A DNA stretch of 64,000 nucleotides. Origin: Candidatus Chlorohelix allophototropha (GTDB lineage Bacteria > Chloroflexota > Chloroflexia > Chloroheliales > Chloroheliaceae). Below, one piece after another: positions 7,346 to 57,909 of the stretch. The first letter of the stretch is position 1. Each line of letters begins with the position of its first letter. A model generated the notes under the pieces. That model had not been told where the DNA came from and made no database searches. It saw only the letters and a list, made by a program, of their open reading frames with translations. The stretch covers positions 1,798,001-1,862,000 of the forward strand of contig NZ_CP128400.1 in assembly GCF_030389965.1 (NCBI RefSeq), read 5' to 3'. Made by a program: the position numbers and the translations under genes.

Positions 7346-7611
7346 GCAGCAACTCAGGCAGGGTCAAAAAAGCCATTGCTGCGATTTGGATGCTGAACCA
7401 CTTCGAATCTCCCCCTGAATTTTAGAACGAATCCGAGCGGGGGTGGCAAGGGGTGTCCCCTTGACCTCCTCTCTCCTCTTCCCTCCTTGAGCGAACTAAC
7501 GAATCCGAGCGGGGTTCTCAGGGGTGCAATCCCTGTGCGGGGTCGCAAGGGGTGTCCCCTTGAACTCCTCTCTCCTTTCCCCCTTGAGGGGGTAGGCAGG
7601 TGAATAGTTAC
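7346..7611 (+). mobile_element. MITE copy A (266 bp, IS66-like, internally duplicated)
   Basis: The right end is the consensus TGAATAGTTAC (7601-7611). The left end is a diverged copy, GCAGCAACTCA (7346-7356). The interior holds two units that both begin with CGAATCCGAGCGGGG, so the element is longer than its relatives. It contains the family hairpins AAGGGG-TGT-CCCCTT and CCCCC-TTGA-GGGGG. No target duplication is seen, which fits an old or rearranged copy. It fills most of the 0.5-kb gap between the divergent marR genes. Confidence 0.7.
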
Positions 7612-10699: not shown

Positions 10700-10815
10700 T
10701 CAACAGGACTTTAGCTAGGAAAAGTAATTACTCAGGCGGGGCGATAAGGGGCAGAGCAATTATGCACAATACCTGAATGCTTTCCGGGTTTATGCTACAA
10801 TAAACCAAAAATAAG

Positions 10816-10958
10816 GTAACAACTCAGCCTAGGTATAAAACCAACGAAAAGGGGTGTAACCCTACGGGTCACAGGCACGGGAAACTCCCCGCCGGGGGCA
10901 TAGGGGTGTACCCTATACTTTTTCCCTCTTTATTCCCCCTTGAGGGGGTTAGGGTTAC
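10816..10958 (+). mobile_element. MITE copy B (143 bp) with perfect 8-bp target duplication
   Basis: The left end is GTAACAACTCA (10816-10826); the right end is diverged (TTAGGGTTAC, ending at 10958). The element is flanked by the exact direct repeat AAAATAAG at 10808-10815 and 10959-10966. The interior shares the G-rich CCCCCTTGAGGGGG hairpin, but its middle carries the variant block also found in copy E (GGGTGTAACCCTACGGGT, and ACGGGAAACTCCCCGCCGG). It lies between the copCD-like gene and the TrmB-like regulator. Confidence 0.85.
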
Positions 10959-10982
10959 AAAATAAGAGGAGTAAGATGCACC

Positions 10983-13037: not shown

Positions 13038-13828
13038 GTAATATTTTTGAAGAATTGGCTAATTCGCTCATGGGTGTTGACCCTGAGATGAATCAAGAAC
13101 CGATTTTCGAAAAACAATCCAGTCTTGATTACAACAGGGAAGACCGTAAGGGCGTACCCGAAATAATATATGCCGAACGCAAACGGGATAATGATACTAT
13201 TGCAATTGCCCGGAATTTTCTGGTAAAAGGAAAAGGGCGAGCAATTATAAGTCGGGCAAAGCCGGAATTGCGGGCAAGGCTAGTACAAGAACTGGCAACA
13301 ATAGAATTTGAGGGTCAAACTATAGCTGTAGGCGTGGAAGAATTTGACGCTAGTAACATGTTGGTGTTGAAACGTGCTGATTTTAGCCAACCTGTCACCG
13401 GAGGGCAAGTAGGAATTATAACTGCCGGAAATAGCGACATCCCGGTGGCAGAAGAAGCCGGGGTAGTAGCGCGTGAAATGGGCTGCAATGTTACCTCAAT
13501 CTATGATGTTGGGGTAGCAGGCTTGCATCGTCTTTTCAGACCGCTCCAATCAATGTTGCAGATTGATGTGGATGTAATTATCGTAGCAGCCGGAATGGAT
13601 GGGGCATTACCCTCAGTAATTGCCGGTCTGGTAAATGTTCCGGTTATCGGACTTCCGGTATCGGTCGGTTATGGTTTAGGTGGAAAAGGGGTCGCAGCGC
13701 TATTAACCATGCTGCAAACCTGCGCACCGGGATTGACGGTAGTGAATATTGATAACGGAGTGGGAGCAGGCGCTACCGCCGCGCTAATCGCCAACAGAAT
13801 GGCGGCTATACGCAAGCAAAACTCATAA
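13034..13828 (+). CDS. larB: Nickel-pincer cofactor biosynthesis protein LarB
   Basis: LarB carboxylates and hydrolyses nicotinic acid adenine dinucleotide in the first step of nickel-pincer nucleotide synthesis, the cofactor of lactate racemase and related enzymes. The C-terminal AIR-carboxylase-like domain is well conserved: GNSDIPVAEEA, YDVGVAGLHRL, AAGMDGALPSV and GLPVSVGYG. The TTG start overlaps the previous stop (TTGA); an ATG at 13070 is an alternative that loses twelve residues. No larA, larC or larE lies in the window, so the rest of the pathway must be elsewhere if it is active. Confidence 0.9.
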   Translation: MSNIFEELANSLMGVDPEMNQEPIFEKQSSLDYNREDRKGVPEIIYAERKRDNDTIAIARNFLVKGKGRAIISRAKPELRARLVQELATIEFEGQTIAVGVEEFDASNMLVLKRADFSQPVTGGQVGIITAGNSDIPVAEEAGVVAREMGCNVTSIYDVGVAGLHRLFRPLQSMLQIDVDVIIVAAGMDGALPSVIAGLVNVPVIGLPVSVGYGLGGKGVAALLTMLQTCAPGLTVVNIDNGVGAGATAALIANRMAAIRKQNS

Positions 13829-13835
13829 ATTAAAA

Positions 13836-13990
13836 GTAACAATTCAGGCAGATAGAAAATAGACCTATGTAACTAAAGGAAACCGAGCGGGGTTCTCAGG
13901 GGTGCAACCCCTGTGCGGGGTCGCAAGGGGTGTCCCCTTGAACTCCTCTCTCCTATTTCCCCCTTGAGAGGGTAGGGGGTGAATTGTTAC
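13836..13990 (+). mobile_element. MITE copy C (155 bp)
   Basis: Perfectly complementary termini GTAACAATTCA (13836-13846) and TGAATTGTTAC (13980-13990). The second-base substitution relative to other copies is mirrored at both ends. Flanks AATTAAAA (13828-13835) and AAATAAAA (13991-13998) match at 7 of 8 positions, consistent with a decayed target duplication. The left flank begins on the last base of the larB stop codon. The remainder of the gap to 14138 is A+T-rich and holds no other gene. Confidence 0.85.
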
Positions 13991-14137
13991 AAATAAAAAT
14001 CAATAGGAGATTATTGTACAAAATGCTTATGGTTCTTTGCTGTAAAAGGAATTATAATCATCTTAGATACTAAATATACGCGAAATAGTTTATTTGACCT
14101 TAATAATTTATATGTTTAACTATATAGGTCGATTGAT

Positions 14138-20184: not shown

Positions 20185-20197
20185 CGATAATTGCTTT

Positions 20198-20354
20198 GTA
20201 ACTATTCACCCCCTAACCCCCTCAAGGGGGAAAAGAGAGAGGGTGAGTTCAAGGGGACACCCCTTGCGACCCCGCACAGGGGTTGCACCCCTGAGAACCC
20301 CGCTCGGATTCCGTTAGTTACCTAGGTCTATTTTCTATCTGCCTGAATAGTTAC
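20198..20354 (-). mobile_element. MITE copy D (157 bp) with perfect ends and target duplication
   Basis: This is the best-preserved copy. The terminal inverted repeats GTAACTATTCA (20198-20208) and TGAATAGTTAC (20344-20354) are perfect. Exact 8-bp direct repeats ATTGCTTT flank it (20190-20197 and 20355-20362). The interior carries CCCCCTCAAGGGGG, AAGGGGACACCCCTT and CAGGGGTTGCACCCCTG hairpins. The orientation is opposite to copies A, B, C and F. The target duplication starts 5 bp after the upstream stop codon. No coding capacity. GTAA ends with 8-bp duplications match the IS66 family. Confidence 0.9.
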
Positions 20355-20380
20355 ATTGCTTTTAGGGCTTTCGCTTTAGA

Positions 20381-56538: not shown

Positions 56539-56548
56539 GGGATTGTGC

Positions 56549-56722
56549 GTAACTATTCACCCCCTAACCCCCTCAAGGGGGAAGGGAGAGAAGGAGGAGT
56601 TATAGGGGACACCCCTATGACCCCGGCGGGGAATTTCCCGTGCCTGCCTGTGCCCTGAAAGGGTATGAACCCGTAGGGTTACACCCCTTTTCATTAATTC
56701 GTCTCAAGGGCTGAGTAGTTGC
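56549..56722 (-). mobile_element. MITE copy E (174 bp) with perfect 8-bp target duplication
   Basis: Left end GTAACTATTCA (56549-56559), right end TGAGTAGTTGC (56712-56722), two mismatches from the consensus. Exact direct repeats GATTGTGC flank it (56541-56548 and 56723-56730). The duplication starts 2 bp after the tpiA stop. The middle carries the copy B variant block (GGCGGGGAATTTCCCGTGCC, then CCCGTAGGGTTACACCCC). Confidence 0.88.
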
Positions 56723-56795
56723 GATTGTGCAGCTTTTGACGGGGCAGGGGTTTCCACCCTGCGCCCGTTGTATTTTATTACAGCGAAGCAACAAG

Positions 56796-57749
56796 ATGTT
56801 TTGCATTTATTGCGGATTTAAAAATAAAGCCGAAGCAACAGATTGTGCCAATTGCGGAAAGCCACTCCTGACTCATAACGCAACTTCTGGAACACTCCAG
56901 AGTTTAGCGCGTCTGCTAGAAGAGCAAGATGAGCTTCAAGTTAGCCTACCGCCAAGTATTTTTGACGAGAATTACAAACCCTCGCCCAATAACCCTGATG
57001 ATTTGTGGACAATACCCAGACCGCCCTTTCCTGAAATGGCTTCAATCCCTGAAGCAAGTAATCCACAACAGATAGATGTTCCACCGTCTTTCCAGTCTTT
57101 AAGATTGCCCCGCCAGCCTGTAAATATGGATTCGCTTGCCAGTTCTACGGTTACCAGTAGTTATGGCATCACCGAACCGCGCCCCAGCAACGTCCACTAT
57201 GAGGGCAATTTTACCTGCCCAAATTGTCGCCAAATCAAGCCGCTGGCAACCTCGGTAACCATTAAAGGATTCTTGGGTTCAAGCAAAAAAATTTGCTACG
57301 AGTGTGCCAGCACCATTTCGCTACAACAAATTTACTCTGCCCCCGGTACTCTCTCCCATGCGGCAATGGGCTTTCTGGTAGGAGTAATTTTCGGCGCTTT
57401 ATGCGCGGTGCTTTTTGGAATAGCCTCCCTAATTACACGGCAAGTTCTAATGGTAAGCTTTGCAATGGTGGGCTTTTTAGTGGGCGTTAGCGCCCGTTCC
57501 GGCAGTGAGAATCGTGAAGGTATTTTGGTGATGTTGGCAGCAATGCTGGCTACATTGGTAACTTTTGGTTTTTGCCTTTACACCTCTATTATCGGTATCA
57601 ACAACCTAAAATTCGTAAGTTGGGTAGAATTTCAGGATATGCTGGCAAAGCAGCAGATTCTACATTACTGGGACTGGATTAGTCTTGGAGTAGCGCTGGT
57701 AATTGCTTTTCTAATACCACTCAAACCCGGCATTCGCGATATAGAATAG
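56796..57749 (+). CDS. Zinc-ribbon membrane protein, function unknown
   Basis: 317 residues from the ATG at 56796, which puts the first zinc ribbon at the N terminus (MFCIYCGFKNKAEATDCANCG). An upstream start at 56727 would add residues partly encoded by the MITE flank and is unlikely. A Pro-rich spacer is followed by a second ribbon (CPNCRQIKPL ... CYEC) and about four helices in the C-terminal third. It is bracketed by MITE copies E and F. Confidence 0.7.
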   Translation: MFCIYCGFKNKAEATDCANCGKPLLTHNATSGTLQSLARLLEEQDELQVSLPPSIFDENYKPSPNNPDDLWTIPRPPFPEMASIPEASNPQQIDVPPSFQSLRLPRQPVNMDSLASSTVTSSYGITEPRPSNVHYEGNFTCPNCRQIKPLATSVTIKGFLGSSKKICYECASTISLQQIYSAPGTLSHAAMGFLVGVIFGALCAVLFGIASLITRQVLMVSFAMVGFLVGVSARSGSENREGILVMLAAMLATLVTFGFCLYTSIIGINNLKFVSWVEFQDMLAKQQILHYWDWISLGVALVIAFLIPLKPGIRDIE

Positions 57750-57762
57750 TTACTAAAAATCG

Positions 57763-57875
57763 TACCTATTCAGCTAGGAAAAATAGACCTAGAAACTCCG
57801 AGCGGGGTTCTCAGGGGTGTCCCCTTTACTTCCTCCTCTCTTTCCCCCTTGAGGGGGTAGGAGGTGAATAGTTAC
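57763..57875 (+). mobile_element. MITE copy F (113 bp)
   Basis: Left end GTACCTATTCA (57763-57773, one mismatch), right end TGAATAGTTAC (57865-57875). Flanks TAAAAATC (57755-57762) and TAAAAAAC (57876-57883) match at 7 of 8. It is the shortest copy and lacks the middle CAGGGGTGCAACCCCTG block. The flank starts 5 bp after the upstream stop. Confidence 0.85.
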
Positions 57876-57909
57876 TAAAAAACCCTAGTTTATTAATGAG
57901 GATAAATAT

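What the first reader, a model, noticed from the sequence alone, without database searches (positions are those of the whole stretch)
20190..20362. IS66-like MITE family with perfect ends and 8-bp target duplications
Seen: six G-rich elements (7346-7611, 10816-10958, 13836-13990, 20198-20354, 56549-56722, 57763-57875) share ends close to GTAACTATTCA / TGAATAGTTAC. Three are flanked by exact 8-bp direct repeats (AAAATAAG, ATTGCTTT, GATTGTGC) and two by 7/8 matches. Known: IS66-family elements start with GTAA and make 8-bp duplications. Inference: these are non-autonomous IS66-type MITEs that moved as units, not plain intergenic repeats. Six copies in 64 kb implies a large genomic burden.
Basis: partly seen in the sequence, partly recalled or inferred. 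Interest (0 to 1): 0.8.

Follow-up and report, generated by a model that had tools for sequence, protein, structure and literature searches.

The report
Small jumping element using IS66 transposase
The repeated 110-420-base G-rich sequences are a genuine family of tiny "hitch-hiker" transposons that carry no gene and are very probably moved by an IS66-family transposase present in the same bacterium; this is a new family of a well-known kind, notable mainly for its heavy clustering in one part of one chromosome and for serving as a landing site for two other insertion sequences.

Summary
Confirmed. The element at 20198-20354 has perfect 11-bp inverted ends (GTAACTATTCA/TGAATAGTTAC) and a perfect 8-bp duplication (ATTGCTTT). 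It belongs to a family with about 64 loci in the genome; of 21 copies with both ends assigned, 18 have flanking 8-bp repeats matching at 7 or 8 of 8 bases, against none of 420 mismatched flank pairs. The probable autonomous partner is in the same genome: nine 1.5-kb IS66-family elements of the one-gene (ISBst12) type, eight uninterrupted. Five begin with GTAACAATTCAGCCAG, identical over 16 nt to one MITE end, and 7 of the 8 uninterrupted ones have exact 8-bp duplications. A 65%-identical IS66 element in a same-family genome has GTAACTATTCAG at both ends and an exact 8-bp duplication. Contig sizes identify the host as 'Ca. Chlorohelix allophototropha' L227-S17. Extras: 42 of 64 loci lie in 0.66 Mb of chromosome 2; none were found on the chromid or plasmids; two IS4-family elements repeatedly inserted into the MITE's GGGN5CCC palindromes. 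It is a new member of a known kind.

The parts
20198..20354 (+). MITE copy (157 bp); perfect 11-bp inverted ends; C-rich end (A-end, GTAACTATTCACCCCC) on the left
20190..20197 (.). 8-bp target duplication ATTGCTTT, left copy
20355..20362 (.). 8-bp target duplication ATTGCTTT, right copy
20253..20263 (+). Palindromic GGGGACACCCC in the core; in other copies the same site (read as GGGGTGTCCCC on the other strand) is the target of an IS4-family element
10816..10958 (-). MITE copy; right end shortened to GGGTTAC; exact duplication AAAATAAG (10808-10815 / 10959-10966)
13836..13990 (-). MITE copy, ends GTAACAATTCA on both sides; 7/8 duplication (13828-13835 / 13991-13998)
56549..56722 (+). MITE copy of a variant core; exact duplication GATTGTGC (56541-56548 / 56723-56730)
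57762..57875 (-). Short MITE copy (114 bp), left end GTACCTATTCA; 7/8 duplication (57754-57761 / 57876-57883)
7346..7611 (-). Degenerate or rearranged copy with two core units; exact right end, poor left end (GCAGCAACTCAGGCAGGGTCA), no duplication

Best explanation
The finding is a family of non-autonomous IS66-type MITEs. Each copy is a gene-less G/C-rich core between ends of an ISBst12-group IS66 element. An IS66 transposase (TnpC) supplied in trans recognises the GTAACWATTCA ends, moves or copies the unit, and inserts it at staggered cuts 8 bp apart, which repair turns into 8-bp duplications. Shown: the ends, the duplications, many dispersed copies, and autonomous IS66 elements with matching ends and matching duplications in the same and a related genome. 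Inferred: that the resident 482-aa TnpC, or a lost close relative, is the enzyme that did it, and that the core is passive cargo between functional ends.
For: 18 of 21 assigned copies have 7-8/8 flanking duplications, 0 of 420 mismatched pairs do. IS66 (PF03050, NF033517) elements: nine copies of a 1.5-kb element, eight uninterrupted; seven of those eight have exact 8-bp duplications (AAATGTTT, TGTTAATC, AATTATTT, TTCAATTT, CATTATTG, TAAGATTT, GAATCATT); five start GTAACAATTCAGCCAG, identical over 16 nt to the MITE B-end seen at C2:1790001 and C2:2150192. Same-family genome G083: 65%-identical TnpC between GTAACTATTCAGCCAG and GACCTGAATAGTTAC with duplication AAGAAATA; a 54% relative in another family (G091) also ends GTAACTATTCAGC/GCTGAATAGTTAC. 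The published ISBst12-group element ISDge4 has ends GTGACTACTCAGCA/GTAACTGCTCAGCA, one transposase gene and an 8-bp duplication on observed transposition (PMC12898284).
Against: The second MITE end (A-end GTAACTATTCACCCCC) matches the resident IS66 right end (GTAACAGTTCAGACC) only in the outer ~11 bases (9/11), and no core similarity to the IS66 element was seen, so descent from the present copies by internal deletion is not shown. No MITE was found on C3-C5 although 7 of 9 IS66 copies lie on C3 and C4, so the present IS66 copies may be later arrivals. No transposition was observed and no empty site in a sister strain could be compared.
Confidence: 0.93

Rival explanations
1. Plain intergenic palindromic repeats (REP-like or terminator-like) that spread by recombination or gene conversion, not by transposition.
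For: The core is made of palindromes and the strand folds well (z -4.3); copies lie between genes; some copies are core-only tandem arrays.
Against: Fixed inverted ends with 8-bp direct repeats in 18 of 21 assigned copies and the same ends on IS66 elements. No terminator-like site or Rfam family in the copy.
Confidence: 0.04
2. MITEs of another transposase family that also makes 8-bp duplications, with the GTAA end shared by chance.
For: Several IS families make 8-bp duplications (general knowledge); the A-end matches the resident IS66 only over about 11 bases.
Against: 16-nt identity of the B-end with five resident IS66 copies, and 11-nt identity of both ends with the G083 IS66 element. The two resident IS4-family elements examined have other ends (ATMRGTTACAAGTTAAG, ATARGCGTATAGTTAAG) and 11-bp duplications.
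Confidence: 0.03
3. A sub-question within the best explanation, not exclusive of it: the MITE was mobilised mainly by an older, now lost IS66 element rather than by the resident one.
For: Resident IS66 copies are 95-99.7% alike and mostly on the chromid and plasmid, where no MITE was found; the exact end GTAACTATTCA is that of the G083 and G091 IS66 elements, not of the resident ones.
Against: The B-end is identical to the resident left end over 16 nt; MITE copies up to 97% alike with exact duplications exist, so some moves are fairly recent.
Confidence: 0.45

Closest known systems
IS66 family, ISBst12 group (for example ISDge4 of Deinococcus geothermalis)
   Same: Ends of very similar sequence (GTGACTACTCAGCA / GTAACTGCTCAGCA in ISDge4), 8-bp duplications; the resident autonomous partner has a single transposase gene (482 aa)
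   Different: The MITE carries no gene and is 114-417 bp; its A-end continues CCCCC instead of GCC
Chunjie MITE of Geobacter uraniireducens
   Same: Short gene-less element with conserved ends and direct repeats, dozens of full and partial copies, mostly intergenic (review PMC10969869)
   Different: Other organism and size range (178-235 bp); its sequence was not compared here
MITEPsy1 of Pseudomonas syringae
   Same: Non-autonomous element thought to use a resident IS transposase (PMC3189936)
   Different: Linked to ISPsy2, 4-bp duplications, 100 bp
IS231 (IS4 family) target preference, for the nested insertions
   Same: From memory: IS231A prefers GGG(N)5CCC and duplicates about 11 bp; the nested elements here do the same
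   Different: The nested elements are assigned to the IS4 family by models but not to the IS231 group by any test here

Membership tests
MITE (non-autonomous IS derivative) | Short, no transposase gene, terminal inverted repeats | tested here: met
   114-417 bp; 11-bp ends, perfect at 20198-20354
MITE (non-autonomous IS derivative) | Target-site duplication at most copies | tested here: met
   18 of 21 at 7-8/8, 0 of 420 mismatched pairs
MITE (non-autonomous IS derivative) | Shares ends with an autonomous element in the genome | tested here: met
   16-nt identity of one end with the resident IS66 element; the other end 9/11
MITE (non-autonomous IS derivative) | Demonstrated mobilisation in trans | not testable with these tools
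   Needs a transposition assay
IS66-type (ISBst12 group) dependent element | Ends begin 5'-GTAA | tested here: met
IS66-type (ISBst12 group) dependent element | 8-bp duplication | tested here: met
   MITEs and resident IS66 copies
IS66-type (ISBst12 group) dependent element | Partner element encodes an IS66 transposase as a single gene | tested here: met
   NF033517 308 bits, PF03050 153 bits; the 1504-bp element is nearly filled by that one ORF
IS66-type (ISBst12 group) dependent element | Core derived from the parent by internal deletion (common, not required) | tested here: inconclusive
   By inspection no similarity to the resident IS66 beyond the ends; a lost parent cannot be excluded
IS66 family, as an autonomous member | Encodes its own TnpC | tested here: not met
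   The MITE has no gene; it is filed as a dependent of IS66, not as an IS66 element

The most novel reading that the evidence does not exclude
The palindromic cores make these MITEs recurrent safe landing sites for IS4-family elements: a three-layer relation in which an IS66-dependent MITE spreads GGGN5CCC targets between genes and thereby shelters two other insertion sequences (5 of 8 near-identical copies of the two sit inside MITEs, in about 0.2% of the genome). Alongside, MITE spread seems confined largely to 0.66 Mb of chromosome 2.
Probability: 0.35. Interest if true: 0.5.

Novelty: new member of a known kind. Interest (0 to 1): 0.38.

Why it matters
IS66-linked MITEs are little described: in the held library, searches for IS66 together with 'miniature inverted-repeat' or 'MITEs' returned few papers, and none of those I opened reports an IS66-type MITE (subscription journals are mostly not held, so this is not proof of absence). 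This family comes with its probable autonomous partner and clean duplications in a closed genome of a phototroph of special interest, so the end requirements of the poorly studied ISBst12 group could be tested directly. The nested IS4 insertions show how a MITE can become a target platform for other elements.

Tried and rejected
A scan of genome contigs for A-end plus core found nothing (the host's own record may be left out there). Scanning the same collection for close relatives of the TnpC found none (that search reaches only close relatives). A DNA search of 157 other genomes of the class found no MITE, including the four held genomes of the same family. A second IS66-like gene in the host (C2:173934, 29 bits) showed no matching ends and was dropped as a parent. 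A conserved RNA was considered: no Rfam match, no terminator-like site, and RNAalifold gave an unfavourable covariation term with only 1 of 44 pairs changed on both sides, so no support for a selected RNA structure. The 340-aa ORF between the copies at 56549 and 57762 was checked as a possible transposase of a composite: no Pfam or NCBIfam match, and each MITE there has its own duplication.

Full report
OBSERVATION. The six sequences are present. The copy at 20198-20354 has perfect 11-bp ends GTAACTATTCA/TGAATAGTTAC and the perfect 8-bp repeat ATTGCTTT on both sides. The copies at 10816 and 56549 have exact duplications, those at 13836 and 57762 (start corrected by one base) match at 7 of 8, and 7346-7611 has no duplication and only one good end. 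The window holds 10 matches to GTAACWATTCA with up to one mismatch against 2.2 expected.

GENOME-WIDE FAMILY. The window lies at 1798001-1862000 of contig C2 of a 6,086,194-base, 5-contig genome. Contig sizes (2.961, 2.453, 0.375, 0.241 and, by subtraction, 0.055 Mb) and GC 46.8% (window) equal those published for 'Ca. Chlorohelix allophototropha' L227-S17 (PMC10972752); the identification is by those numbers, not by a named record. Searches with two copies and with the core 11-mer GGGGACACCCC give about 64 loci; the core 11-mer occurs 60 times, its reversed control 0 times. The similarity searches are capped, and some loci are fragments or core arrays (for example C2:2231319-2231735 with four core units between two ends, and C2:2268397-2268801).

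DUPLICATIONS. I assigned both ends for 21 copies. Nine have 8/8 and nine 7/8 flank identity, one 6/8, two none; among 420 pairings of a left flank with another copy's right flank the best is 6/8. The copies were picked partly with the help of the flank match (the listing filter accepted either good ends or a good duplication), so the exact fraction is somewhat optimistic. Copies with at most one mismatch in the two ends together (for example C1:2003811, C2:403341, 1718795, 1811836, 1818198, 1855762, 1925527, 1949673, 1981706, 2150192, 2231319, 2355463, C1:554201) qualify on ends alone, and 12 of those 13 have 7-8/8. Duplicated sites are 78% A+T.

PARTNER. PF03050 finds nine copies of one IS66 element plus fragments and a distant relative. 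The element is 1504 bp with one 482-aa gene, matched by NCBI's IS66 model at 308 bits against a cut-off of 180. Eight copies are uninterrupted; seven of them have exact 8-bp duplications. Left ends are GTAACAATTCAGCCAG (five copies) or GTAACAAATCAGCCAG (four); the right end is GTAACAGTTCAGACC. The MITE B-end GTAACAATTCAGCCAG (C2:1790001, C2:2150192) is identical to the first over 16 nt. In the same-family genome G083 a 65%-identical transposase lies between GTAACTATTCAGCCAG and GACCTGAATAGTTAC with duplication AAGAAATA, and a 54% relative in G091 also carries GTAACTATTCAGC ends, there without a duplication. The published ISBst12-group element ISDge4 has closely similar ends and made an 8-bp duplication when it moved (PMC12898284).

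MECHANISM. Best reading: an IS66 TnpC acts in trans on the GTAACWATTCA ends and inserts the unit with an 8-bp stagger. The sequence evidence for ends, duplications and partner is direct; the action in trans is inferred. Whether the resident element or a lost relative did most of the moving is open: seven of nine resident IS66 copies sit on C3 and C4, where no MITE was found.

SURROUNDINGS. Of 17 copies examined, 14 show no ORF of 60 codons or more across the joined flanks; the other three show minus-strand ORFs of 89, 93 and 179 codons that were not verified as genes. The copies are thus essentially intergenic, several within 7-13 bp after a stop codon (13836, 20198, 56549, 57762 in the window). 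No RNA family, promoter or terminator was found in the copy at 20198. The strand folds better than shuffles (z -4.3), as expected for inverted ends plus palindromes, but covariation gives no support for a selected RNA.

DISTRIBUTION. 42 of 64 loci lie in C2:1.70-2.36 Mb, where 6.9 would be expected; none lie on C3-C5, where 7.1 would be expected. The binomial figures assume independent insertions and complete detection, neither of which is assured, and the region was chosen after seeing the hits; but exact end matches and the core-motif count show the same clustering. No MITE was found in 157 other genomes of the class.

NESTED ELEMENTS. Two IS4-family elements (443 and 506 aa transposases) have four near-identical copies each. 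Five of these eight lie inside MITE sequence (C2:527363, 1790174, 1884109, 1791694; C1:2043069), and three of the five have exact 11-bp duplications of a GGGN5CCC palindrome in the core (GGGGTGTCCCC twice, GGGTGCAACCC once). At C2:1790001-1793341 both sit in one MITE-derived block. The preference for GGGN5CCC is recalled for IS231A and was not tested as membership.

VERDICT. The finding is real and its interpretation correct. It is a new IS66-type MITE family, not a new kind of system.

Noticed in passing
G000:C2:1790001-1793341 (L053), C2:527190-528769 (L052), C2:1884109 (L103), C1:2042957-2044710 (L056/L127): Two IS4-family elements inserted in the palindromic cores of MITEs at GGGN5CCC sites, with exact 11-bp duplications in three of five cases.
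   Followed up: partly
G000:C2:1.70-2.36 Mb: 42 of 64 MITE-family loci lie in this 0.66-Mb part of chromosome 2; none found on the chromid or plasmids, where most IS66 copies lie.
   Followed up: partly
window 57743-57753: A further near-end (AGAATAGTTAC) abuts the left duplication of the copy at 57762 and supplies the stop codon of the 340-aa ORF 56727-57749; perhaps the remnant of an earlier insertion.
   Followed up: no
G000:C2:957416 (L007): A ~220-bp A+T-rich sequence with similar ends (GTAACTATTCAGATAC ... GGTCTGAATAATTAC) but another core and no evident duplication; possibly a second MITE family.
   Followed up: no
G000:C2:491355-491478 and C2:2357444-2357560: A subfamily with ends GTAATTACTCA ... 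TGAGTAATTAC, with 7/8 and 8/8 duplications.
   Followed up: partly
G000:C2:2231319-2231735, C2:2268397-2268801: Copies whose core unit is repeated about four times in tandem, about 100 bp per unit.
   Followed up: no
L132, L134, L136 (C2:2352481, 1984208, 1962852): A third IS4-family element with GTAGGGGCG...CGCCCC palindromic sequence at its left junction, another dispersed repeat type in this genome.
   Followed up: no
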